From Catonia carolina (taxonomy: Eukaryota > Arthropoda > Insecta > Hemiptera > Achilidae), in NCBI GenBank assembly GCA_035578175.1, contig JAQMRL010000003.1, positions 61,054,672 through 61,118,671 on the forward strand: DNA of 64,000 bases, in the 5' to 3' direction. Below are positions 473-50,191 of the stretch, one piece after another (the stretch's first letter is position 1; every line of letters begins with the position of its first letter). Position numbers and translations under genes: made by a program. Under the pieces are notes generated by a model. The model was not told where the DNA came from. It worked only from the letters and a program-made list of their open reading frames with translations, and did no database searches.

Positions 473-2233
473 TTAATGGGAAGGATGTACTTGATGGACT
501 GACAGCAAATTATCAATATTTGGCTTCAGTTTTGAGAGGAATAACCGCAAATCTCCCCGTTCTGTGATGTTCAATCTGCTCCTTTTTTTGTTAATAGGTT
601 TGTAACAACACTAAAACTTTTTTCGACAAGGTATGACGAGGGAAACGCTATCAAAAGTTTTCTCACAATTTCCCACAGCCCAGGATATTTTTCGGGTATT
701 TCTGCTTGCAGCCAGAATGTTTGATAGCCTTTTTTAAATTTCACCTTCAGCTCCTCATTGGTGCTAAGCTCGAGTAGTTCCTCTTGAAATACCACATTCG
801 CCACTTCCGTTTCATCAAATGGATTTATGATCCATGGTGGTATTTCCATCGTCAGAATATCTTCAAATCTATTTTTGAAGTCATCATGCAGGGCATTTAA
901 AAATGTTGAACGTATGTCTGAATATCCTCATCGACATTCTGCCTGTGACAAGTTTGGAAACTGGGAGAATTCGCGCCGACTAATATTTTGCTTCATAAAT
1001 TTCAATTTTCCAAGAAAAGCCGAAATTACACCCTTTGTTTTTATTAAATTTAGCCCCTTGTAACTGTAAGTTAATGTCATTAAATTTTTTGTACAAATCT
1101 GTCAAATACGCGATGTCTGCTTTCAATTTGATCAGGTTTTCTTTTAAATCTGAATCTTTACTTTCCAGAAACTCTAAAACTGATTCAAAAAGTGAGTAAA
1201 ATCTTGTTAAACATGCACCTTTCGACAACCAGCGTACTTCAGTATGTAAGAGCAATCGTTGGAAGTCTTCATCATTTTCGTCGCACAATTGTGCAAATAA
1301 ACGGGTATTTAACACATTGCTTCTTATTTTGTTAACTGCTTTAATTACAAATTGAAGCGATTGGTGCAATCTATTACTCAAATTTTTCGCTACCAGGTGT
1401 TGTCGGTGGATGACACAGTGAATTGCAGTTACTCCTGGTATAATTCTTTTAAGATGGCTTATAAACCCACGATATCGCCCGAATATGGCAGGAGCTCCAT
1501 CTGCTGCCACCGAAATAATGTTTGTAAATGGAATCGATTTTTCTTTAAAAAAATCACTCAGGACATTAAATATTGATTCACCTTTAGTGTCCGTATCCAA
1601 AGTTTTCGCGAATAGCAGCTCTTCATGGATTTCTTTGTCCATAACAAATTGAACATACGCTAATAATAATGCTTCATTACCAGGTAAAGTTGACTCGTCT
1701 AGTTGAATAGAAAAATGAGTTGTTTGCAGATAATTACACAAGAAGCTTTCAATATCAGAGCTCATTTCATCAATACGTCTTTGTACAGTGTTGTTACTCA
1801 AAGGAATTCTTTTGAGTACCTCAAATGGAGGTTTGTGCAGAACAGTTTTTAAAACCTCTTCAACAGCAGGTAAAATTAACTGTTCTCCGATGGTGTGCGG
1901 TTTTCCAGATTTTGCTATAAGCAATGAGATATTGTAAGATGCCCGCAAGCCATCATCGTTACTTTGAGACGTTGAAGCGAACATACTGTGCACGGTGGGT
2001 CTCTTTTCATATTTTTCCTTCAATGTTTGAAAATATTTTAAATCTTTACTTATTTTATCAGGATGACACCTTTTTAGATGATCTTCGAGCTTTGATGGTT
2101 TCATAGAGTCATTGCTCAAAACTTTGTTGCATAAAAGGCATATGGGCAATCGTTTGTCTGCCTTTGATGGAAGAAAACCAAATTTCAAATAATCAACACT
2201 GTACTGTCGACATTTCTTCTTAGATTCAGCCAT
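473..2233 (-). pseudogene. hAT transposase with BED zinc finger, frameshifted
   Basis: The ATG at 2233 opens a 417-aa frame that ends at 980. An N-terminal BED-type finger is seen at C32, C35, H52 and H57. RNase H-like catalytic candidates are D179 (in QLDEST) and D245 (in ADGAPA). The hAT C-terminal dimerisation region continues in other frames: one piece at 571-849 has YPGLWEIVRKLLIAFPSSYL, and the last ~35 codons run to a stop near 473. The frame is lost near 1030-1045, disturbed again near 895-935 (in-frame stop or paired indels), and lost a third time at a 7-T run near 582-588. Full length would be about 585 aa, normal for ZBED5/SCAND3-like hAT transposases. Homology is judged from motifs. 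Confidence 0.85.
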
Positions 2234-21658: not shown

Positions 21659-23611
21659 TTAAGCCCATATACAGACATCCAGTCTGTCCAAGTAGGCTAT
21701 TGATTCTGGAGTTGCCATCAGGAAATCCGCTCTTGTCCCTCCTTTAAAGGCAGTTATTCTGCGCTCTTTCACTATGTGATCAATAGTTTGTCTTTGACCA
21801 CACTCACATAAAGGCGATGGTATTTTGCCCCATTTGTACAATAAATCAGCACACCTACCGTGTTTTGTTCTTATTCTATTTAGAGCTGACCATTTTCTAC
21901 GAGGTAGTCCAAAACCTGGCGGTTTTTGTGAAAACCATGGGATTTGTTCTTGCTGCTTTGATGCCCATTCTTGCTGCCATGCACTGGGTATGTTAAATGC
22001 TTCCTCTTTGGCAGTAATTGCAGTTTTTGTAGGTGGCTTTCTTGATCGCAGACGAGTTTTATTTGCGTTTTCAATATCCTCATGAATTCTCAGGTCTTGA
22101 TTGTCGACAATCTTATCATACTCTCTAATGAGGGCATTCTTGCGGCGCAGGTTTGGGGGTGGTATGTGGCTCAATACTGGAAGCCATTCGGTAGGTGTTG
22201 ATCTGATAGCGCCAGTGATCATTCTCATGGTATTATTGAGTTGGGCGTCTACTCTATGAGTGTGAGGGCTGTTTAGCCAGACAGGTGCACAGTATTCAGC
22301 AGCTGAGAACACAAGGCTCAGAGCTGTTGAGCGAAGAGTTGAGGCTGAAGCTCCCCAAGTTGTTCCACAGAGCTTTTGTATAATATTATTCCTTGCTTTC
22401 AATTTCTCTGCTATTCTTGATAGATGATGTTTAAAAGAAAGAGTTCTATCAAGTGTTATGCCTAGATATTTTGGGGTCCTGTTGTGAAGAAGCAATTTGT
22501 TCTCGAACTGGATTTTGAGCTCTCTCTTGGCAAGTTTGTTGTTAAGGTGAAAGCAAGAAACCTCAGTCTTGCTAGCATTAGGCTGCAGGCGCCATTGTCG
22601 GAAATATCTACCCATTCTCTTCAAATCATGAGAAAGAACCTGTTCCGCCTCCTCAAACGATCCACACCTAGTTGCTAACACCCAATCATCAGCATAGCCA
22701 AACTTTTTGGATGTAGTCTTGGGCAAGTCTGCAATGTAGAGGCTGAAGAGGAGCGGGGCGAGCACCGATCCTTGGGGCAGACCATTTTTCAGTTTCCTCT
22801 GTGTGCTTTTGTTGGAACCCATGATGACTTGAAATGTTCTGTCATTTAGCATGCTATTTAAGAGACGAGATGTTATTTTGCATGGAATCACACGAAGAAA
22901 CTTATAAATCAAGCCCTCTCTCCACACTGTATCATAGGCTGCTGATAAGTCAATGAAAGCAGCGGAGGTTTTAAGCTTCTCTTGAAATCCACCTTCAATG
23001 AATGTTGTCAATGAGAGGACCTGGTCACAGCAGCTCCGTTTTGGCCTAAAGCCAGCCTGTTCATATGGTATCACATCAAGAACACTTTGGCAGATTCTAT
23101 TGTAGATGAGCCGTTCCAATAATTTGTAAATCACCGATAGCAATGCAATAGGTCTGTAACTTTTAGTTGAGTCTGCTGGTTTCCCAGGCTTGAGAATTGC
23201 TATTATTTTTGATTGCTTCAATTCCTTAGGTACATTGCCAGTTTGCATTACATCTGTGAAAAATCTGGCCAGCCAAACCCTTGCATATTTTCCACAATTT
23301 ATAAGGAATTCTGGGTTGATGTTATCAAATCCGGGTGCTTTACCAGGTTTCATATCTCTGAGCGCAAGACCAATTTCTTCTGCTGTGAAAGGTTGTGCAT
23401 ATTCAGTCACCACTGCATCATTTTTCATCTTTCTCAGTTCCTGCTTAACCTGGATTGAGTGTTCCTTATCTTTTGGTGCTCTAGATGTTGTCACTATGTG
23501 AGACGCTACAGCATTTGGGGTGACACCAGTTTTTTGTCTTTGAATCGGAGCTGCACTGCCCAATTTTCTTAGCAATGTCCACGCTTGACGGCTTGAGGTC
23601 TGGAAATTCAT
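21659..23611 (-). CDS. Jockey-like LINE reverse transcriptase, 5'-truncated
   Basis: A 650-aa uninterrupted frame from a LINE polyprotein; the frame stays open upstream of this ATG to a stop at 23672-23674. The RT core is clear: KPGKAPGFDNI (88-98), the catalytic aspartate in AFIDLSAAYD (D221), GLPQGSVLAPLLF (277-289) and FGYADDW (304-310, catalytic YADD). A thumb/C-terminal region continues to a CxC...H motif (C602, C604, H612), where the expected last cysteine is replaced within KERR. The apurinic endonuclease domain and ORF1 are missing, as expected for a 5'-truncated insertion, so it cannot transpose alone. The full open RT suggests a fairly young copy. The ATG is probably internal to the original ORF2. 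Jockey-group assignment is from motif style. Confidence 0.85.
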   Translation of the reverse strand: MNFQTSSRQAWTLLRKLGSAAPIQRQKTGVTPNAVASHIVTTSRAPKDKEHSIQVKQELRKMKNDAVVTEYAQPFTAEEIGLALRDMKPGKAPGFDNINPEFLINCGKYARVWLARFFTDVMQTGNVPKELKQSKIIAILKPGKPADSTKSYRPIALLSVIYKLLERLIYNRICQSVLDVIPYEQAGFRPKRSCCDQVLSLTTFIEGGFQEKLKTSAAFIDLSAAYDTVWREGLIYKFLRVIPCKITSRLLNSMLNDRTFQVIMGSNKSTQRKLKNGLPQGSVLAPLLFSLYIADLPKTTSKKFGYADDWVLATRCGSFEEAEQVLSHDLKRMGRYFRQWRLQPNASKTEVSCFHLNNKLAKRELKIQFENKLLLHNRTPKYLGITLDRTLSFKHHLSRIAEKLKARNNIIQKLCGTTWGASASTLRSTALSLVFSAAEYCAPVWLNSPHTHRVDAQLNNTMRMITGAIRSTPTEWLPVLSHIPPPNLRRKNALIREYDKIVDNQDLRIHEDIENANKTRLRSRKPPTKTAITAKEEAFNIPSAWQQEWASKQQEQIPWFSQKPPGFGLPRRKWSALNRIRTKHGRCADLLYKWGKIPSPLCECGQRQTIDHIVKERRITAFKGGTRADFLMATPESIAYLDRLDVCIWA

Positions 23612-37008: not shown

Positions 37009-37335
37009 TACAAATAAATTATTTATTTCTTTGATTTACTTTTGGACTTCTACGTCATGTGAATTTTGAGGCGCTGCAACTCCTTGATAACTCAGACGAA
37101 ATGAAAAGACTTAAGTGCCAGAAAACCTTCGAATTGGTTTGATTCAGGAAATATCTTATATCAGTCTATTTTGTAATTTTGTAAATAACCAAATGTAATA
37201 AATTATCCTGTAAATCAGTTGTACATCAATTAATTATCTTGTAAAATCTTATGTTTTGTTTTAAAAAGTAAGAATATATATATATATATTTTTAAAAAAA
37301 TAAGAATGGTTTATTTTAGAAAATAATAATAGTCA

Positions 37336-38530
37336 TGTATTAAATAAAATTGTAAAAATTAATAAAATGAATGAATTGAATTGGTGCTGTAATAAAATTA
37401 AAAGATAGATTGGATTATTAAAAATGTACCGTGTTTTACACACGAGAATTAGTGTTTCCTTTGAACAGGATTTAATTTTTAAAAAAAAAATTCTTTAATT
37501 TTATTTAAGGTATGATTTTGTTGTTCGTGAGGTAGTGTGAGTGATTAAAACGTATTCCAAGTAGATGTCTCCATTCTTCTACTCCATTCAGCGGTAATAA
37601 CCTGTAAATTTCACTCAACCACTTACCTGTTTTAAAATAATCTATATTAAAGGTTGCCTCCACCAGGACGTCGTAGAACGGCCCAACGTCCAAGACCTGA
37701 AATTTCCTACGAAGGAATTTAAAAAAAAAAATACTTTGGGGGAAGTTTTGATTGGAGAGTCAAAACCCTGTTTCAAGTTGTTACTGTGAAATATCAGCTC
37801 AGATTTCTCTAGAGAGCCACTGTTCTCGCTTTGTGGTTTGCGAGAAAGTACGGCTGTTTTCAGATTACGGAATCCTTTCAGACAGTGAACATAAATTTTG
37901 TAACCAAAACATATTGCAACTTAATAAAAATCACCATACAAGGCCATTGGTGAATAAATCTTGGAGAAACAAGAAATTTTAGTAAATTCGCCAAGACATA
38001 TACCTTTTTGTGTTTATAAATAATCAAACACGGTGCAGTGTTTAATATGGAGGTTCAAAAATAAATTTGTAGGTACAGTAGCTCTAAAACAGTACCCAGA
38101 AGCGTTATAACTGTACTGAATAACGTTCATTCAAGTATCACCCATTATGAATACAATTCAATGTTGGAGTACATTCATCTGAAAAACTTATTTCTAAGAC
38201 TAGACTAACAAAACAGGAAGATATTCTTTTAAAATAAAAAACAAGAGACGAATTTCAGTTTAACATTTTAGATTTATTTTTATAAATTTATATTTTTTTA
38301 AACGTTTTTTTTTTGGTATTTAATTTAAAGTTTTTAACATTTTATAATTAAAATTTTAAATAATATTTCTTCTTTTTTTTTTAAATTTGAACAGAATTAA
38401 ATTATTTTTGTTAATTATTTTTATTTTTATATATTTTTAACGTATTTAAAGTAGGTATTTAATTTAAAGTTTTTAACATTTTATAATTAAAATTGTGTTT
38501 TTATTATTAGCCCATTATTATTATTTTTAA

Positions 38531-38588
<58 letters not shown>

Positions 38589-39401
38589 TAATCAAAAAAA
38601 CTAAATGATTTCACTAATTCTACATGAAATTTTTTTTTTATTTACTATTATTTAACTATATTTTTGTTTTATATTTTCCATTTAAAATGGTTCTAAAAAA
38701 AAAGGTTATTTTTTTCTTTTCTTCATTTTTTTTTTTATTTAGTTGTACAAAAGAAAATTAAAAGAAAATTACCTTTTTTAGTGAGTATCCAATCACAGCA
38801 CCTTAGAAAAACGAACTTTTCGCGTACACAATAGGAAAAACACTCAGACGATCTTCTTCACACACACGGCTGACCGGGGCGCTAATTACCGGCGTACGGA
38901 GGGGGAAAACCAATCAAACTAGCCGTTATGAAAGACGTTGACAATCCGGCGTAAAACAAACGCGTTAATTGGCCGCAAAAAGTGCTGAAGTAACGGTAGG
39001 CCCCTCTACAAAAAGTACGTAGAGATGGAACTGAAAAATTGTTCCCAGGATCCAGAATTGCCAAGTAAGGGTTTTAAACAGTGAGAACTGAAAATAGGCC
39101 TTTAGGCTTTCTTATTTCCCACGAGAAAACGCGATGTAAAAACATGTGTAATAAAACCAACTAGAATGAACTAATAAAACGTGATTTCTTTATGAAATAA
39201 TAAAAATTATTGAAAAGAACAATGCTATGTAAAATTACAAACTTTATTCATAATAAAATAATATTTTTCTTCCTTAACGAATAAAGAAAAAAAACACCAT
39301 TTTAATTATTTTAAAAAGACAAAATTTGATCAACTCCAAGGGTCTAGGGAGATTTCCAACAAAAGTCGAAAATTTGGAATAGTAAAGTCAAAAACTTTAC
39401 A
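37336..39401 (-). repeat. 3' LTR, 2066 bp
   Basis: On the sense (minus) strand it begins TGTAAAGTTTTTGACTTTAC, a terminal hairpin, and ends AATACA, giving TG...CA ends. It contains an ATT microsatellite (38530-38589) and several T-rich runs. It matches 48121-50191 base for base apart from one T in two homopolymers, one ATT unit and the last base. Short frames inside it also occur in the other LTR. Confidence 0.85.
38530..38589. repeat. (ATT)n microsatellite in the 3' LTR
   Basis: About 20 ATT units; the homologous tract at about 49316-49378 has one unit more. Confidence 0.9.
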
Positions 39402-39413
39402 TTCCCCCACTCC
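39402..39413 (-). other. Polypurine tract
   Basis: GGAGTGGGGGAA on the minus strand lies directly against the TG of the 3' LTR. This is the expected place for plus-strand priming and sets the element's orientation. Confidence 0.75.
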
Positions 39414-40077
39414 GGTATATGGAAAACCCAAAGAGTGGCTGAAAGGGGGAAAACTAGGAAAAAAAAATTTACGGGAATTCGGGAACACTAATTGGATTGT
39501 GTAGAATCAAAGATTTCTATGCAATCATCTCCCTTGGAGGGGGGTGTGTAAAAAAAACTGAAAGATAAACGAATCGTTTGGCAGTGTGTGTGCTAAGAAG
39601 TTGCCTAACATTAGTAAACTTTAAATTGCTGGAACCTGCAATGTCCATCGAGACAAACAGACCGCTATAGAAAGACGAATAGGTCAAGTAATTATCCTTG
39701 AATCTTAAGTTAATAAGACAAAAAAGGTAAGACAAAAATAATAAAGAACAATTCCCATTTTTAGGGTTAGAAGACTGAAAAAACAAAACTGTTAGCAATT
39801 CAAAGGTCTGTTTATTGTAGATTTGCATTGCAGATTGTACATTGTAGTGTGCTGTATGCTTTTTGAATTAATTAATTAATTAATAAATTCGGAATTTAAA
39901 ACAACTAGCTTTCTGAGACGTAAAAGTATGATGAATGAACGAAATTATGTTCTCCGTATTATTATTGCTTATTACTATCTTATTACTATTTACTACTTCC
40001 TTATTACTATTTAAATCTCTTATGCCCATTTCTCTGAATTTAGATGATAAAGGTAGAAATTTAGTAGTTTCTTAAAC
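39414..40077. other. Spacer between env and 3' LTR
   Basis: Non-coding, with further purine/pyrimidine-rich runs near 39440-39460 and 39525-39545 and an ATTAATTAATTAATTAAT run at 39869. A 103-codon minus frame at 39517-39828 shows no family pattern. Confidence 0.5.
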
Positions 40078-41997
40078 TCAATCTAACCTACGCAATTCAA
40101 TATGAGTTGGCTTGTTTACCTTTGCGGTTAGTATTTTAATTTTGATATATAAGTATAACTGTATGATGAAAATGATAATTAAGGCTGTGTATACTACAAA
40201 TTTTGATACATGATCGGCAAGAATAATGTCTTTCCATGACTTAGGTAGGCTGCTCTCTTGGAAAACATAATCAGGGGTTTCATCATGAATGGAAATTTGG
40301 GGGAATGATAAGTTCCACTTGTGGTTCACAAGGTCAGGGAGTGACGAGATGGAAGGATGGAAATCTGTGTGAAAGGAAAACTTATAATGGTCGAAGGTTG
40401 ACCAGGAAACGGGTAGCAAATGAGTTACCCCCGGCGACTTCGGAGTCCTGGAATCACACGGCACAACCCTGTTGATGATCGGTAACTCTCCTTCCATGAC
40501 TTCACATTCGCAGGGCACTTGAATGTCCAAAGCACCGGCAACATTGACTGGAAGTTCGACTGTTGTTGTAGGACAAACTAGACGAGTATTGTGTTGTGGA
40601 TTGGTGATGTAGTACCTTGATATTTGCACTTCTGTTATGTAAACTTCTGTCGTTCGCTTATGGCAGACGAAATGGCATTTATGCATTAATTGTTGCAGTG
40701 AACTGTCTGTTAACATTTGCTTGATGCAATCTGTGTTAATGCTGGAATGCTGTTGGAACCTTGGAATGAAACATAAGCCATTATTATTCAAGTCGCAAGA
40801 AGATGATGGTGATAGAGTTCGCACTCGTGGTCCACTCCTGATTACGTAAATATGTGGTGTTTCCAGTGAACAGATCTGGTTTTCCCATAGTAGTGGTATT
40901 GGAGCAACTTGAAACAGTGTATGATATACCGATGTGGTAATGATGGGTACTTGTAGTTTTAATAGAATTTTCGTTTTTGAAAAAACGCAAGTTGTTATTG
41001 GCTTTTCATAATAGAGGTGAGCTTCTTGTATAGGCAATACTAATTGTTGATTGCCTTTGTGAAGTTGGGAAGACAAATTTCGTAGATCAGCCTGTAGCAT
41101 ATCAGGTGTTACTAGTTCCCTAGGTAGCGTCTTCTGTTTGCAAGACATTTGCACTGAAGTCATGTGCGAATAATACGTGTTCAGGAACGATTGCCAATGT
41201 ACACTATGCAAAATAGTCAGTAGATGATATAATTGTATTAGTTCAGTGTTTTCAGTGTCTTGAATCATTTTAGCGTATAGATTTAATTCTTCTTCCGTTT
41301 CTTGAAGGATGGATTGAACTCGGTGTGTTACCATGTCTATGTTTTGTGTAGATTTTACTAAATTTTGGTGGTCGGAGTGTACTGTTTGGGTGAGGTGGTT
41401 ATAATGTTGCATTAGATATTTTTCGTTATGGAACGTTTCTTGTAGTTGATGTTGTGTCGCAGTTCCACAGCAAAAGTTTAAAAATTCGCCCACAAAGTCT
41501 AGGGCTCTGCGTGTGCGTGAAGGATTCAAATTTGAAATTGGCAGTCCTGTCGTGAGGAGAATATTGAAGGTTTCCTTTGATAGTGTAGTTATACGTTGGA
41601 AAAGTTGACATGCTGGAGACGAGTTGTTGTTGTCCTTAATTGCAGTAGCGAAGTGTTGTTTGAAATCCAGCGGGGTTTTTAAGGTTTTACTAGGAAAGGA
41701 ATTTAGTTTAGAGTAGTCGGTGTTTTGGGATTGTGAGATATTAATGAATAGTGTTAAATCTGGAAATGGGCAGGATAAATTTTGGAATAGATTTGAGGTT
41801 TTCGGTAAATCAGGCTGTGAGTTAAATGGGATAAGGTAGGTTATCGGAATAGAAGAGTCGTAAAGGTACACATCGGAAATATTTCTGATATGGAAACCAG
41901 AGAACAGTTTAATAACGTTATTTGCGCAAGCTACATTTTTCTCGAAGAGAAATAGAAACGCGGACAAGATCAACAATTGCTTTAGTACGGGGGACAT
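40078..41997 (-). CDS. env: Envelope-like fusion glycoprotein (baculovirus F/errantivirus env type)
   Basis: Intact 639-aa type I membrane protein. Signal peptide about residues 1-24; N-glycosylation sequons near 39, 73, 86, 124-125, 307 and 562; furin-type site RTRR at 161-164. A hydrophobic fusion-peptide-like segment starts at 165 with the FVG...CCG pattern of the baculovirus F, Iris and insect errantivirus env family. A heptad-like helical region spans about 183-250, then a cysteine-rich ectodomain, a transmembrane helix at about 600-618 and a 21-residue tail. Known relatives mediate membrane fusion; here that is inference. It is the only long ORF between the LTRs and is less AT-rich than its surroundings. 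The ATG follows a good splice-acceptor sequence by 11 nt, so expression from a spliced LTR transcript is likely. No disruption is seen. Alternative: a domesticated env-derived gene. Confidence 0.9.
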   Translation of the reverse strand: MSPVLKQLLILSAFLFLFEKNVACANNVIKLFSGFHIRNISDVYLYDSSIPITYLIPFNSQPDLPKTSNLFQNLSCPFPDLTLFINISQSQNTDYSKLNSFPSKTLKTPLDFKQHFATAIKDNNNSSPACQLFQRITTLSKETFNILLTTGLPISNLNPSRTRRALDFVGEFLNFCCGTATQHQLQETFHNEKYLMQHYNHLTQTVHSDHQNLVKSTQNIDMVTHRVQSILQETEEELNLYAKMIQDTENTELIQLYHLLTILHSVHWQSFLNTYYSHMTSVQMSCKQKTLPRELVTPDMLQADLRNLSSQLHKGNQQLVLPIQEAHLYYEKPITTCVFSKTKILLKLQVPIITTSVYHTLFQVAPIPLLWENQICSLETPHIYVIRSGPRVRTLSPSSSCDLNNNGLCFIPRFQQHSSINTDCIKQMLTDSSLQQLMHKCHFVCHKRTTEVYITEVQISRYYITNPQHNTRLVCPTTTVELPVNVAGALDIQVPCECEVMEGELPIINRVVPCDSRTPKSPGVTHLLPVSWSTFDHYKFSFHTDFHPSISSLPDLVNHKWNLSFPQISIHDETPDYVFQESSLPKSWKDIILADHVSKFVVYTALIIIFIIQLYLYIKIKILTAKVNKPTHIELRRLD

Positions 41998-42008
41998 TAT
42001 TCTTGGAT

Positions 42009-42026
42009 CTCACACAGAGAAAGAAT
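42009..42026 (-). promoter_or_regulatory. Candidate env splice acceptor
   Basis: On the minus strand TTCTTTCTCTGTGTGAG precedes ATCCAAGAATA and the env ATG. A pyrimidine-rich run followed by AG is a strong acceptor pattern. It pairs with the consensus donor in the 5' LTR. Confidence 0.55.
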
Positions 42027-44099
42027 TTACTTTGGTAGTTGTTATAGATTGATATAAATTTAAAATTGCTCGTGGAAGAGAATACAATTTAAATTACTTA
42101 AAGCGTGTTCAAGATACAATTACTATGTAATAAAACTAATTAGCTTGTTTGTATATTATGTTGTCTTGTTTATTACTGAGACTTCGTTGGCCTTATCTTC
42201 ATACGGTTAACTTAGATGTTAAGTGAAGCCTTATCTTGTCTTAAACGAAGTGCTGATTTGATTCTCTATCTCACTGGTTTATCAATCGCTTAGCCACCGG
42301 GATATGGACAATATTATATGATGCTTACATGAACAAAATTTTATTTAAATCTAAAAACAGAGGAAATGAACAATAGTGAGTTTTACTCTTAAACTAAAGT
42401 AATTTTAAATAGGGGTGTTGAAAAACAGAATCGTCCTTCATGCCGTTTATGCGAAGAACGGGAGACAAACAGAATTTGCCGTATAGTATTGTACTGTAAT
42501 TATAATTCTAAGTTTAAATGAGTTGTCATAGCACTATTATATACCAACATTCGGATACAACTCTGAATTGTTGTTTGTCTGTCCGTTGAAATTATAAAAA
42601 AAAAATCATCAATTCATATTTCAATTAAACTGTGGTTGCATTGTGGTACTGTCAAAATATGAAGAGAAAAAAAGGTTGAATAACCGAAACTAGAAATCTA
42701 CCACCACTGGAAAAGGCAAGTCACCAACCATAACGGGGTAGCCTAGCCTACTTTTCGTTAGCAAAAACTACCAAACTTACTGTTGTACGGTATATGCCGC
42801 AAATATAAGCCTACTCTTCATGCGATACTGTAAATATTAAAACGCTCAAATTCCTACTGCTACAAAACTTCAATATCCTTAGTAGATTAAGAAAAATATA
42901 TTACAGTGTAGCAAATTATGAAATATGAAATTACGAAATACCAGATGCTCTGAGTAAGAAACACAAACAAACTTTCTACTCAGCAAATCCCTGTACATCT
43001 CTACTAAATTGTTCACAACGAAATATCAGTAGTGATTAATTAAGCAATACTTCAACGTAATATTAAAGTATGAAACCAAAATAGTCTTAAAACGTATGCT
43101 CAAGATAATTTTATAATTGAACAAAATGTAACCTTTTGCTGAAACCTATCGATGCGAAACCATCTAAAATTTAACATACTGTCCAGTTCAAAACCTGCTG
43201 AAGAAAATCCAATCTGAAACTTGCTGCAAAACTAAAACTCCTGTACTTGAAATCCAACACAAACAAATTTACAACATACAAAAACCAGCTCTTTAAAAAC
43301 AAAATCCTTCACAATCCAAAAATCCATTTCCATTGTAGGGTTAAATAAAGTAAACAAAAAAAATCAAATGGGATGTCTTAGCAAGGAATCAGTGATAACA
43401 AAAAAATCAAAACTTGACAAAGGGTTAGAGCGGAAAGAACCCTTTGTGTGATAACCAAAAAACGAATTGGGGGGGGGGTCGTCCTAGTAATAAGTGAAAC
43501 AATGAAAGAAAAAAAAAGTGTAGTTAATGAATAAAACAAAAACACAGGGCCACAAACAAAAATATTCCACTATCCAGCCGTCGACCTAACGGGAGATTTT
43601 CTGTCGAACTTTTCCTGGAAAGCGACCATGCATACCGGCCAGGTACTATCCGACTAAAACAGTGACTGCCTGCTAGCTGTACGCAACAGACCGCAGATCA
43701 GCCCCGTACAAAAATCAAGGGGGAAACGAATTTTGAAGTTATGAAATGGATGAGACTCACAGAAAGAAATCCACTAACTCGTCTTGAAAAGCAGATTTTC
43801 CCACATTCACACATCATTCAAGAGGCCCCTTTCATACAACTCATTCACTCGTCAGATTCGGGCCCATTCGTACGCGAAAATCTGGTCTTGGAAACAGTAT
43901 GGGTTCCTCTATGTATCTGAACCAAATCAAAACTGTGACTGCGTTACCGGAACTGTACGAAGGGTACCACCATACACCACCGCAAACTCCGATAACCAGT
44001 CAAAGTGGTAAAGAAAAATGAGGCCGGTTAAGCTAACAACCAGTAGCGAAATTTAGTAACTGAAAGACGGATTGAGCGGACGAAATGTAACTCTCTCTC

Positions 44100-44345
44100 A
44101 TAAAATCCTCATAGACTCCAAAAATCAACATCAAAAACTCATCATAAACTCCAATAATCATCAAATAATCTCCATCAACTTCAAAACTCAATAACATCAT
44201 TAATCATCATATAACTCCATTAAACATCAATAACTCTTCATCAACTTCAATAATCATCAATAAAACTCCATTCACTTCAATATCATCGCAAAAAAATCCT
44301 CATTATAATAATCATATAATCTTCAGAACCTCACAATAAAGTTTG
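44100..44345 (+). repeat. Degenerate tandem repeat (CATCA/AACTCCA units)
   Basis: Irregular reiteration of AACTCCAATAATCATCAATA-like units of about 20-35 bp, with frequent point changes. Confidence 0.6.
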
Positions 44346-44391
44346 CAAACAAAAACAAGAAAAAAAAATCGTATTCCATAAAGTTCAGAAA

Positions 44392-44483
44392 GCAGCACGT
44401 TATCTATAGCGCTACTCAAAGAAACTAACTAACCAACCTCCTTAACTCCAAAGTGTAGGGCAGCACGTTATATCTAGCGCGAC
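44392..44483 (+). repeat. Short direct repeat GCAGCACGTTAT
   Basis: GCAGCACGTTATCTATAGCG at about 44392 and GCAGCACGTTATATCTAGCG at about 44462, spaced 70 bp. Purpose unknown; could be a binding-site pair or duplicated sequence. Confidence 0.6.
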
Positions 44484-47400
44484 CCTAAAATTAATCCTGT
44501 ATTAACTCAAAAATAAAAAAAAACTTCGCACACGTGAGTAATTGGTGTGAAAGAACTTTATTGTGAGTCACACTGTATTGCACTGACCGGCTAAGACACT
44601 CCTGTAATAAAATTGACAATAAAAAAAAATACCCTATATCCTAACTCTAGCAATCACGAAAACACTCCAATACTTAAACCTCTTTAAAACAACAACTTAA
44701 AACATTCCAAAACATCGATTTTCATTAGTTATTAATTGGCAAGGCTATATATAAATATAAAAAAATTAAAAAATCATACTGACGGCTAAGAGAAAATAAA
44801 ATGTGAACAACTTGTAGCTAACTGAAAGCAAACTTACCCCAAAAAAAAACAATAATGTATTCGACAGTCCACAATACAACATGCAGTAGGCCTGCGTTAA
44901 GATACGAGGCAAAAGAGAAATAGTGAATAAAAATACCTATTATATTAAATATATACTAGTACAATTATATATATTGTACATAATACGGGCCTTGAAACAT
45001 TTATATAATTGCTATGAGACGTAAAGAAAGAAAAAAAAAATAAAAATATTGACTATAAAAAGATTTAAGCAATGACTTTCGTGATTCTGACAGTCCAAAC
45101 GCAAAATACAACCAAATGTTTCTAGTACATTATATTTAAACCAAAACCCATACATCAAATCACGTAATGTGATCCAATACACGGACATTATCCCTATTGA
45201 AGACGTTAATTTCTTTATAAAAAAAAAATGTTATAAGTCCCAAAATAAACACATTTAAAATATCGAGGACAGGAACCAAATATCGTTCTATGGCGTTAGT
45301 TTAAAATATTTAAAAATTAAAAATAAAACCAATACTATAGTTAAAAACAACGTTTTGTTAACAAACTCAGCAGAGGACCTGCAATTTGACATGGATATGT
45401 CCACAAAAATAAAACGTGATACACAAAATGCTATTATAAATTTAAAAAAAAAATAATTGTAGAGACAAAGCTGTAAAAAAAAATCAACGAGAATGCGACT
45501 AAAATAGGCCAATAGTCAAATGTTACAAGCAACAGAAAAGCTTCTTAAAAACAGCGCAGGTAGGAAGAAACACTGTTAGCAAAACTGGAATCTAAAAGTG
45601 GTCAAAAAAAGTCAGTAAACAGAAATATGATTAAGAGTGGTAACAAAATTTTGTTAAAAAAAAACGGAATTTAACGGATATATAGCAGATAAAGAAACGA
45701 AAAACACAATTCAAACAAACACTAGTACTAAAATGAAAAAAAAAATCGCCCTGAAGTAATAGAAAAAATAAAAATACAAAAAGAATGGCTGCTAAAAAAA
45801 AAATGACACGCCTAAAAAAAACATCTAAAGTATCACCGAAGTACAAAGAGACTGTAAACAGATGTGCAGAATTTGATTGGAAAAATAGCTTGAATGGATG
45901 AAACACAATTAAGAAAAACTACGGAGAAAGAGAAAAAAAAAATTTAAAAACAACAATTACAGAATTAAGGAAATCGCTTTTAGCTAAATAGAACAAAATA
46001 GAACCCTGATATTGTGAAAAGTCGTGTTAATACCAAATGAAATATTAAGCAGAAAGAGACTTGAGTGTGTTGTCCCTAACATGAAAATAAATTACAGTTA
46101 GTCGATGATGAAGAAACAGAATCCAACGGCGTAAACACTATAAAATTAAAAATTTTGGTGGTAAAAAACCACCATCGGCACCTGTTTTGAAAGATAAACT
46201 GAATACTTACGCTATCAATACAGATTGTAAATGATAAAGTTGTAAAGCCAAAATGTAATACCACACAACACCCAAAATAAAATATTCAGAAAACGGAAAA
46301 GATATTTGTGATAGTAAACACAAAAATAAATTGAAAGTGTAAGTGTACAAAAATGAAAAACAAAGATTAAATTAAAAATACATTTCAAGGGACTGAATCG
46401 AAAAAATTATAACTAAACAGAAGCGTAAATAAAACTGCGAACAACTTGCCGCTGATATCAAAGTGGCTAAGGGTCTGGAAAATTTGACGCATTGTGACGA
46501 ACGAGAATTAAAAATTAATTCCTTTGGATCTTAGGGAACCAGAACCTAAATCAAACGAAACTCCTACTATAGATTGGACGTTATTTGGCCAGAAACTGGG
46601 ATGACCTAGTTGAAAATCTCATTGTAGTTCATTTGATTAAGCCAAAACATGAAAATTCCAACGAAATTTTTATTGAAAACATTACGGGGTAAAACTGTTA
46701 ATGGAAAAAAAACGAAGCACAAAATGCAACAAAACATTATAGAAATATAGGATAAAAAAAATAGAAGTAGCTACAAACTGAAACAAAAATACTATGAAAA
46801 ATTTCAACTTGTACTATTGGGTGTGTGACTATGAAAACGAGCGCTATTTTACTATACAAGAAAAGTTGAAAAAAAAATTGATCTCTGACGACCTTTACTG
46901 AAGACAAATCCTTGAAGGTGCTTGAGTTCCAAAATTGAGAATGAGGACGGCAGTGCACCGTAGTCGAGGACTACGACTTATGCTAAGGATTAAATATATC
47001 TTTACATACCAGGAAGATCGAAAAAGCAGAATCCTTATGGCAGGAAATGCTGGGTTTTCCAGAGATGTTAAACTATGCTGATTACAGGTGTAGTTGCGTG
47101 TTAAGCTCATCTGATATGCGAACTTTAGTAAGACTTCATTAGATTCTCGGCCATTAAATTAAAATGATCATTCTCGAACTTATATAATACTAAAAAAACC
47201 ACACAAAAAAAAACAACTATTAGTATAACTTCGAATTATTGCTATTTCATTATTAAGTATAAAATAACGTATAATTTTAAAACATAAAATTTCAAAACTT
47301 TTCATTTTTTAAGTTAAATAATTGTAAGAATAGCGTATTATTTGCATTCCGTGTATAATTGATAAAAATAGTTCACTTCGAACCTCGAACTGCATAACAT

Positions 47401-48097
47401 GACTATTATATCAAAAAAAAATTAGTCATTGCCATGTCTATACTCATTTTACTCACAAGAAACACGCAAAAATTATGGAAACTTTATTTTGCCCAAAAAT
47501 CCATGTCCCAATAAACAAAATGCAATCAAAAATATTGCATAAATCATTCCTATAAAATACGTCAGAATAACAGCTGATTTTAAATTCAACGTGATGGTTA
47601 ATTATGTCACGTAGTTCGATAAAGGATATTATCTTTCATAGTAGTATCCGCAATGTTGTGATATACCATGTATTAAATACTATGTATTGTTAAACACATA
47701 CAATAAAAAAAAATTATGAATTCCTACATGTAACTCTGATATTGTACGCTAATTACATCAGAAATAAAACTCCACAGGCTGGCAATTCCACAATGTTGCC
47801 ATGTCTACACTGTAAAAAAAATTAACTTATAAAACTTATTTACATTGAATAATTATAAATGTAATGTAACTGCTGAAAGAAAACAGAATTATTTACTAAG
47901 ATCTTATAACGGTAATATAAATCCACAATATTTTCATCTCATAACGACGTTAAAAGAAAACAATACAATTATACACATTCCAAAGCCGCATATCTTGTAC
48001 ATAACCCTGAAAAAAGACCTACATTAACATAAAATATAACTCCATAATTTCTGGAAAAGAAATTTATTTCAAAAAAAAAGATCACTGTCTAGAATCA

Positions 48098-48115
48098 ACC
48101 TTGGCGCTTCCACCA
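48098..48115 (-). other. Candidate primer-binding site
   Basis: Minus strand TGGTGGAAGCGCCAAGG begins 5-6 nt inside the 5' LTR edge. The TGG start is required to pair with a tRNA CCA end. I could not match it to a specific tRNA. Confidence 0.45.
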
Positions 48116-48120
48116 TGTCA

Positions 48121-49316
48121 GGTATTAAATAAAATTGTAAAAATTAATAAAATGAATGAATTGAATTGGTGCTGTAATAAAATTAAAAGATAGATTGGAT
48201 TATTAAAAATGTACCGTGTTTTACACACGAGAATTAGTGTTTCCTTTGAACAGGATTTAATTTTTAAAAAAAAAATTCTTTAATTTTATTTAAGGTATGA
48301 TTTTGTTGTTCGTGAGGTAGTGTGAGTGATTAAAACGTATTCCAAGTAGATGTCTCCATTCTTCTACTCCATTCAGCGGTAATAACCTGTAAATTTCACT
48401 CAACCACTTACCTGTTTTAAAATAATCTATATTAAAGGTTGCCTCCACCAGGACGTCGTAGAACGGCCCAACGTCCAAGACCTGAAATTTCCTACGAAGG
48501 AATTTAAAAAAAAAAATACTTTGGGGGAAGTTTTGATTGGAGAGTCAAAACCCTGTTTCAAGTTGTTACTGTGAAATATCAGCTCAGATTTCTCTAGAGA
48601 GCCACTGTTCTCGCTTTGTGGTTTGCGAGAAAGTACGGCTGTTTTCAGATTACGGAATCCTTTCAGACAGTGAACATAAATTTTGTAACCAAAACATATT
48701 GCAACTTAATAAAAATCACCATACAAGGCCATTGGTGAATAAATCTTGGAGAAACAAGAAATTTTAGTAAATTCGCCAAGACATATACCTTTTTGTGTTT
48801 ATAAATAATCAAACACGGTGCAGTGTTTAATATGGAGGTTCAAAAATAAATTTGTAGGTACAGTAGCTCTAAAACAGTACCCAGAAGCGTTATAACTGTA
48901 CTGAATAACGTTCATTCAAGTATCACCCATTATGAATACAATTCAATGTTGGAGTACATTCATCTGAAAAACTTATTTCTAAGACTAGACTAACAAAACA
49001 GGAAGATATTCTTTTAAAATAAAAAACAAGAGACGAATTTCAGTTTAACATTTTAGATTTATTTTTATAAATTTATATTTTTTTAAACGTTTTTTTTTTT
49101 GGTATTTAATTTAAAGTTTTTAACATTTTATAATTAAAATTTTAAATAATATTTCTTCTTTTTTTTTTAAATTTGAACAGAATTAAATTATTTTTGTTAA
49201 TTATTTTTATTTTTATATATTTTTAACGTATTTAAAGTAGGTATTTAATTTAAAGTTTTTAACATTTTATAATTAAAATTGTGTTTTTATTATTAGCCCA
49301 TTATTATTATTTTTAA

Positions 49317-49377
<61 letters not shown>

Positions 49378-50191
49378 TAATCAAAAAAACTAAATGATTT
49401 CACTAATTCTACATGAAATTTTTTTTTTATTTACTATTATTTAACTATATTTTTGTTTTATATTTTCCATTTAAAATGGTTCTAAAAAAAAAGGTTATTT
49501 TTTTCTTTTCTTCATTTTTTTTTTTTATTTAGTTGTACAAAAGAAAATTAAAAGAAAATTACCTTTTTTAGTGAGTATCCAATCACAGCACCTTAGAAAA
49601 ACGAACTTTTCGCGTACACAATAGGAAAAACACTCAGACGATCTTCTTCACACACACGGCTGACCGGGGCGCTAATTACCGGCGTACGGAGGGGGAAAAC
49701 CAATCAAACTAGCCGTTATGAAAGACGTTGACAATCCGGCGTAAAACAAACGCGTTAATTGGCCGCAAAAAGTGCTGAAGTAACGGTAGGCCCCTCTACA
49801 AAAAGTACGTAGAGATGGAACTGAAAAATTGTTCCCAGGATCCAGAATTGCCAAGTAAGGGTTTTAAACAGTGAGAACTGAAAATAGGCCTTTAGGCTTT
49901 CTTATTTCCCACGAGAAAACGCGATGTAAAAACATGTGTAATAAAACCAACTAGAATGAACTAATAAAACGTGATTTCTTTATGAAATAATAAAAATTAT
50001 TGAAAAGAACAATGCTATGTAAAATTACAAACTTTATTCATAATAAAATAATATTTTTCTTCCTTAACGAATAAAGAAAAAAAACACCATTTTAATTATT
50101 TTAAAAAGACAAAATTTGATCAACTCCAAGGGTCTAGGGAGATTTCCAACAAAAGTCGAAAATTTGGAATAGTAAAGTCAAAAACTTTACA
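48121..50191 (-). repeat. 5' LTR, 2071 bp
   Basis: Direct repeat of 37336-39401. On the sense strand it starts TGTAAAG and ends AATACC, the final C replacing the A of the 3' LTR. TATAAATTTATAAAAATAAA-type TATA candidates lie near 49067-49090 and would start transcription upstream of the splice donor at 48411. Confidence 0.85.
48406..48414 (-). promoter_or_regulatory. Consensus splice donor in the 5' LTR
   Basis: The minus strand reads CAG|GTAAGT, a perfect 5' splice-site consensus, about 1.78 kb into the LTR. The same site at 37621-37629 in the 3' LTR has no downstream partner inside the element. Paired with the acceptor at 42009 it defines a 6403-nt intron. Confidence 0.55.

What the first reader, a model, noticed from the sequence alone, without database searches (positions are those of the whole stretch)
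37336..50191. LTR element that keeps an intact env but has no gag-pol
Seen: 2.07-kb LTRs identical except for homopolymer/ATT slippage and one terminal base; a polypurine tract; a 639-aa env-type ORF with signal peptide, RTRR site, fusion-peptide pattern and C-terminal membrane helix; no ORF in the 6.1 kb where gag-pol belongs. Known non-autonomous LTR elements (LARD, TRIM) usually carry no coding DNA at all. An element young by its LTRs that has lost everything but env is the opposite of normal decay, since env is usually lost first in errantiviruses. Inference: mobilised in trans while spreading an env gene, or env kept by selection.
Basis: partly seen in the sequence, partly recalled or inferred. 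Interest (0 to 1): 0.88.

Follow-up and report, generated by a model that had tools for sequence, protein, structure and literature searches.

The report
Retrovirus-like element carrying only envelope
A virus-like jumping element in what looks like an insect genome has kept an intact cell-entry (envelope) gene but shows no detectable trace of the genes it would need to copy itself, so it probably travels on the machinery of other elements.

Summary
Confirmed and sharpened. The element lies on the minus strand: 5' LTR 48116-50191, 3' LTR 37332-39401 (1 substitution, 6 gap columns in 2,076), a PPT (CCGGAGTGGGGGAA) against the 3' LTR, and a PBS-like TGG right after the 5' LTR's terminal CA. The 639-aa ORF is an F-type envelope: it belongs to a family with Baculo_F members, one of which (click beetle) is fused behind a Ty3/gypsy RNase H-integrase. 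Its predicted fold matches chuvirus-type and baculovirus fusion glycoproteins and paramyxovirus/pneumovirus F. In the 6.1-kb interior, none of 106 open pieces matches a gag or pol Pfam family; a relative's Pol finds only chance-level matches. Near-identical LTRs with no recognisable gag-pol imply that gag-pol was already missing at the last reverse transcription, so replication came in trans, unless the LTRs were later homogenised. Weaknesses: no 4-6 bp target-site duplication; no other copy could be sought, because the genome search did not complete (22 tries). Best reading: an 'envelope-only' non-autonomous errantivirus derivative, counterpart of plant TR-GAG elements. A split gag-pol/env pair is the boldest reading not excluded.

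The parts
48116..50191 (-). 5' LTR, 2,076 bp, TGTAAAG...TACCTGACA (TG...CA)
   Evidence: 1 substitution and 6 gap columns against the 3' LTR over 2,076 columns; first seen
48098..48115 (-). primer-binding-site candidate, sense TGGTGGAAGCGCCAAGGT, immediately after the LTR's terminal CA
   Evidence: position and TGG start read from sequence; the tRNA partner was not identified
41998..48097 (.). 6.1-kb non-coding interior in the place of gag-pol; strongly strand-asymmetric (on + strand 30 A-runs of 7 or more and no T-run)
   Evidence: open pieces no longer than chance; 0 of 106 pieces match gag/pol Pfam at E 1; chance-level matches to a relative's Pol; run counts
40078..41997 (-). env ORF, 639 aa, F-type fusion glycoprotein, intact
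   Evidence: relatives; Baculo_F in relatives; predicted fold
41506..41517 (-). RTRR cleavage site of Env (residues 161-164), followed by fusion-peptide block ALDFVGEFLNFCCGTATQ
   Evidence: R164 in 28 of 29 rows; C176, C177, G178, A180, T181 in 29 of 29
40129..40200 (-). C-terminal transmembrane segment of Env (about residues 600-623)
   Evidence: Kyte-Doolittle maximum 2.43 in the 19-residue window starting at residue 600; helix 596-626 in model
39416..40077 (-). untranslated stretch between the env stop and the polypurine tract
   Evidence: read from sequence
39402..39415 (-). polypurine tract, sense CCGGAGTGGGGGAA, abutting the 3' LTR
37332..39401 (-). 3' LTR, 2,070 bp, ends TACATGAC where the 5' LTR ends TACCTGACA

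Best explanation
A non-autonomous derivative of a Ty3/gypsy errantivirus-like retroelement that encodes only Env. Shown: paired near-identical LTRs, PPT, PBS-like site, intact F-type env, no recognisable gag-pol. Inferred: full-length RNA made from the LTR is packaged, reverse transcribed and integrated by Gag-Pol supplied in trans by another element that recognises the same ends. The long interior serves as RNA leader or spacer and may carry packaging signals. A spliced or internally started RNA gives Env, which goes to the surface, is cut at RTRR and fuses membranes, so particles formed by the helper can enter other cells, including the germ line.
For: LTRs differ by 1 substitution in 2,076 columns, while none of 106 open pieces of the interior matches a gag/pol Pfam family. 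The same kind of scan saw RVT_1 in 3 of 6 forty-residue slices of an intact RT domain in this window (E 5e-6, 2e-4, 0.09). In one relative pol sits directly before env in one frame (P0033), and that Pol finds only chance-level matches here (tblastn best E 0.09-0.20; phmmer best E 1.4). Env is F-type by homology and predicted fold and intact, with 16 of 17 cysteines kept in 26 or more of 29 rows. Trans-mobilised defective ERVs are documented (PMC10924933 passages).
Against: No exact target-site duplication of 4-6 bp in the registers tried; a fresh insertion should have one. Only one copy is known: the genome search did not complete. LTR identity can also come from gene conversion. No helper with matching LTRs is known. 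The PBS primer tRNA is not identified. The gag-pol scans would miss a gene saturated with changes.
Confidence: 0.55

Rival explanations
1. A private, one-off lesion: an ordinary gag-pol-env provirus inserted recently and, at this locus only, gag-pol was replaced by unrelated DNA (a nested insertion plus deletion, or recombination). It is then not a family and not mobile.
For: The interior has a composition unlike the rest of the window (30 A-runs, 0 T-runs), as foreign DNA might. No TSD would fit a rearranged locus.
Against: The replacement would have to remove gag and pol completely up to just before env: no integrase remnant was detected upstream of env. No long repeat pair that would bound an inserted transposon was listed in 39400-48120: inverted arms reach 24 nt at 79%, and the direct families shown (20 of 25) are short or A-rich.
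Confidence: 0.2
2. A co-opted env (syncytin- or Iris-like): an old provirus whose env is kept by host selection while gag-pol decayed beyond recognition; the LTRs look young because of gene conversion between them or with other copies.
For: Env intact, with conserved cysteines, cleavage site and fusion peptide. The missing TSD fits an old locus. Gene conversion of a selected ERV env in primates is the subject of PMC2567338 (title and start of abstract only, in the listing).
Against: Conversion would have to erase all but one substitution over 2 kb of A/T-rich LTR. A neutral interior decayed past recognition needs very long times. Neither selection at this locus nor expression has been tested.
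Confidence: 0.15
3. Assembly artefact: the two LTRs or the interior come from mis-joined reads or haplotypes.
For: LTR differences are mostly homopolymer and microsatellite indels, which assemblers get wrong. No TSD.
Against: PPT, PBS-like site, TG...CA ends of the 5' LTR and env orientation all agree with one retroelement in one orientation. The element has no blastn match (E 1e-3) in the rest of the window.
Confidence: 0.07

Closest known systems
Insect errantiviruses (Ty3/gypsy with env-F, e.g. ZAM, gypsy; Metaviridae)
   Same: LTRs, PPT, F-type Env with furin-like site, fusion peptide, conserved cysteines and C-terminal anchor; a relative of this Env is fused behind a Ty3/gypsy RNase H-integrase in a click beetle (P0033)
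   Different: No gag or pol detected; 6.1 kb of non-coding DNA in their place; LTRs about 2.07 kb; no 4-6 bp TSD seen
LARD (large retrotransposon derivative)
   Same: Long LTRs, long non-coding interior, non-autonomous
   Different: Keeps an intact 639-aa env; LARD is defined as carrying no domain (PMC6022998 passage)
TR-GAG elements of plants (PMC6022998, passages)
   Same: Non-autonomous LTR element that keeps one structural gene
   Different: Keeps env instead of gag; found in what looks like an insect genome
Defective, trans-mobilised ERVs of mammals (bovine D-type ERVK[2-1-LTR]; MusD/ETn, IAP delta-1, RecKoRV as listed in PMC10924933, passages)
   Same: Interior without replication genes, presumed help in trans
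   Different: The bovine D-type elements lack intact ORFs for all four genes, env included (passage)
Co-opted env genes (syncytins, from recall; Iris of Drosophila, seen as a cited title)
   Same: Env intact where gag-pol is gone
   Different: Here the LTRs are paired and nearly identical, so the last copying looks recent
Env-bearing BEL/Pao elements of mosquitoes (chuvirus-like glycoproteins; PMC13172572 passage)
   Same: The best viral-library fold matches of this Env are chuvirus-type glycoproteins
   Different: By sequence this Env falls in a family with Baculo_F members and, in one relative, a Ty3/gypsy Pol

Membership tests
Errantivirus (autonomous Ty3/gypsy with env) | paired LTRs with PPT at the 3' LTR | tested here: met
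Errantivirus (autonomous Ty3/gypsy with env) | PBS complementary to a host tRNA next to the 5' LTR | tested here: inconclusive
   TGGTGGAAGCGCC directly after the LTR's CA; no host tRNA in hand; 0 tRNA genes found in the window
Errantivirus (autonomous Ty3/gypsy with env) | gag and pol | tested here: not met
   0 of 106 open pieces match gag/pol Pfam at E 1; a relative's Pol finds only chance-level matches
Errantivirus (autonomous Ty3/gypsy with env) | F-type envelope | tested here: met
   9 of the 32 rows carry PF12259 Baculo_F in the precomputed column; 2 of 8 scanned do, 0 of 2. Predicted fold matches baculovirus F among others and paramyxovirus/pneumovirus F. The query itself has no Pfam hit
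Errantivirus (autonomous Ty3/gypsy with env) | 4-bp target-site duplication | tested here: not met
   no exact 4-6 bp match between the flanks in the registers tried; a 3-bp TAC is possible by eye
LARD | long LTRs and long non-coding interior | tested here: met
LARD | no coding domain | tested here: not met
   intact env
LARD | multi-copy family with shared interior | not tested
   The genome search did not complete (22 calls)
TR-GAG | only a GAG domain | tested here: not met
   no gag match
Co-opted env gene | purifying selection on env at an old orthologous locus | not tested
   no orthologous DNA could be fetched

The most novel reading that the evidence does not exclude
One half of a split (two-part) endogenous retrovirus: env rides on its own LTR replicon with shared packaging and primer signals, while gag-pol rides on one or more env-less partners. 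The two depend on each other: the partner copies both RNAs, and this element gives the particles their entry protein. The strand-asymmetric 6-kb interior would be a conserved RNA part that lets it be packaged.
Probability: 0.12. Interest if true: 0.88.

Novelty: new variant of a known kind. Interest (0 to 1): 0.6.

Why it matters
In the Drosophila lineages described, env is the gene that is lost while gag-pol stays. An element that moved recently with env alone would show the reverse division of labour: an Env donor that depends on foreign Gag-Pol. That would give a natural source of Env for env-less retrotransposons and make the question of pseudotyping between insect retroelements testable in a genome.

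Tried and rejected

Rejected: a decayed antisense gene in 45-47 kb. The + strand pieces look lysine- and asparagine-rich, as A-rich DNA gives; no Pfam match was found and open lengths are at chance. Period-3 signal is not consistently raised in the interior, but three of its 702-bp windows exceed the 90th percentile of the whole window (2.15 and 2.30 at 43723-44775, over the tandem repeat; 1.92 at 46882-47583), and some windows inside env score low, so this test is noisy. An isolated RNase H-like stretch at 43292-43399 minus (40 columns, E 0.09-0.20, one stop inside) was left as chance: nothing else of Pol is near it, and in the whole-window search with low-complexity masking off a flank stretch scored higher (1551-1712, 25.8 against 22.7 bits). 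The reversed interior gave a best E of 4.0 with the same settings, so I cannot fully exclude it. RNA structure: 12 tiles folded, 11 with z between -1.32 and 1.39, one (43866-44015) at -2.94; not pursued.

Literature: ten searches (118 rows listed in all, several lists cut) showed no title or start of abstract about an env-only LTR element. I read passages only of PMC10924933, PMC12992720, PMC13172572, PMC4276936, PMC6022998, PMC11952523 and PMC6085415, and saw PMC2567338 only in a listing. The library leaves out most subscription journals, so this is weak evidence of novelty.
Full report
Observation. The element lies on the minus strand. The two LTRs align over 2,076 columns with 1 substitution and 6 gap columns: two A-run indels of 1, one ATT unit and the terminal base. 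The next letters, TGGTGGAAGCGCCAAGG, start with TGG as a primer-binding site should. The 3' LTR ends TACATGAC. The polypurine tract CCGGAGTGGGGGAA (11 purines of 14) abuts the 3' LTR. No exact 4-6 bp target-site duplication was found in the registers tried; a 3-bp TAC is possible by eye if the LTR ended earlier.

Envelope. The ORF at 40078-41997 has no Pfam, NCBIfam or meaningful PDB sequence match of its own. A protein search gave two relatives, P0002 (40% identity, 99% coverage) and P0003 (29%, 71%); an alignment search gave the same two. A search from P0003 gave 32 rows, itself included. The hosts named among the rows are beetles: Leptinotarsa, Hypothenemus, Abscondita, Pyrocoelia, Aquatica, Tenebrio, Ignelater, Gonioctena; most rows name no host. 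The precomputed column lists PF12259 (Baculo_F) for nine rows. In my own scans 2 of 8 relatives matched it (P0015 E 2.5e-9, P0021 E 2.7e-16) and P0002 and P0003 did not. P0033 from Ignelater luminosus joins a Ty3/gypsy RNase H and integrase to the start of this env in one frame.

In the 29-row alignment A4 (P0001-P0029; the weaker, partial or fused rows P0030-P0034 were left out) R164 is kept in 28 of 29. L166, F168, C176, C177, G178, A180 and T181 are kept in 29 of 29. Of 17 cysteines in the window's protein, 16 are kept in 26 or more of 29; C24 is private. P0001 and P0002 form a clade with 100/100 support on a long branch.

Fold. With these relatives the model rises from mean pLDDT 37 (3 sequences) to 68.8, pTM 0.46 (29 sequences). 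Foldseek against viral models gives 23 matches at E 0.001 or below. Glycoproteins of a chu-related virus and of myriapod and beetle viruses lead the list. Baculovirus F proteins are among them (E 1.2e-11, 1.2e-10, 7e-10, 1.4e-9). Others are glycoproteins of lispi-, arli- and rhabdo-like viruses, a torovirus S and a few unnamed or uncharacterised proteins. Against the PDB the 21 matches at E 0.001 or below are paramyxovirus or pneumovirus F. TM-scores by query length are low (0.18-0.33), and VIA-align Z (up to 6.6) does not stand clear of unrelated helical chains. So I claim the class (F-type fusion glycoprotein), from sequence family and fold together, and no details. The chuvirus-type matches leave a BEL/Pao-like history of the env open at the fold level; the sequence family and P0033 point to Ty3/gypsy.

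Interior. In 41990-48130 the longest stop-to-stop stretch is 95 aa; 200 second-order Markov sequences have a median of 106 and a 95th percentile of 146. The 106 open pieces of 30 aa or more were scanned against Pfam at E 1. Nineteen families matched one piece each, best E 0.0074, none of them gag, protease, RT, RNase H or integrase. Control: six 40-aa slices of the intact RT domain of the window's own RT ORF gave RVT_1 in 3 of 6, at E 5e-6, 2e-4 and 0.09. So a moderately decayed pol should have shown itself; one saturated with changes would not. P0033's Pol part gave best tblastn E 0.09-0.20 in the interior, while the reversed interior gave 4.0 and a flank stretch scored higher in the unmasked whole-window search. 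phmmer against 294 pieces of 15 aa or more gave best E 1.4.

A feature not in the finding: the interior is strand-asymmetric. On the + strand there are 30 A-runs of 7 or more and no T-run. In 79 overlapping flank windows of equal length the difference of A- and T-runs lay between -5 and +7. The LTRs are balanced (5 and 6 each).

Argument. gag-pol decayed past recognition after insertion cannot coexist with LTRs that differ by one substitution, unless the LTRs were homogenised. So gag-pol was probably gone before the last reverse transcription, and the enzymes came from elsewhere. Documented parallels exist in mammals (PMC10924933, passages). Drosophila elements known to have lost env are the opposite case (PMC12992720, passages). 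In plants TR-GAG elements keep gag (PMC6022998, passages). An env-only counterpart did not turn up among the 118 rows listed by ten literature searches, which cover open-licence papers only.

Limits. The whole-genome search did not complete (22 calls), so copy number, helper and insertion age by orthology are open. The missing TSD weakens the claim of a fresh insertion.

Verdict. A real and well-formed LTR element with an F-type Env and no recognisable gag-pol. Best reading: a non-autonomous, trans-mobilised env-only errantivirus derivative (0.55). Interest 0.6 until copies are shown.

Noticed in passing
window 41998-48120: Extreme strand asymmetry: 30 A-runs of 7 or more and 0 T-runs on the + strand; highest 2-kb AT skew of the window (0.33). 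Cause unknown.
   Followed up: partly
window 43866-44015 (-): One of 12 folded RNA tiles is unusually stable (z -2.94; 1 of 200 shuffles as good).
   Followed up: no
window 44097-44280 and 44392-44488: Degenerate 30-bp tandem repeat, and a 29-bp direct repeat GCAGCACGTTAT... 68 bp apart.
   Followed up: no
P0033 (Ignelater luminosus): Reading frame that joins a Ty3/gypsy RNase H-integrase directly to the start of an F-type env.
   Followed up: partly
P0001 and P0002 against P0003, P0004, P0008, P0014, P0015: The window's Env and P0002 end shortly after one membrane segment, while the other five carry a further hydrophobic stretch and a longer tail (by eye).
   Followed up: no
window 21659-23611 (-): Intact 650-aa reverse transcriptase ORF with RVT_1 only (E 1e-35) and no integrase match: looks like a non-LTR element.
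   Followed up: partly
window 980-2233 (-): 417-aa ORF with a BED zinc finger just under the curated cut-off; elsewhere in the flanks single pieces match Transposase_1 and DDE_3.
   Followed up: no
window 6002-61114, many copies: Dispersed repeat families outside the element, e.g. AAAAAATCTGGTGTGAAACACTCACAC....
   Followed up: no
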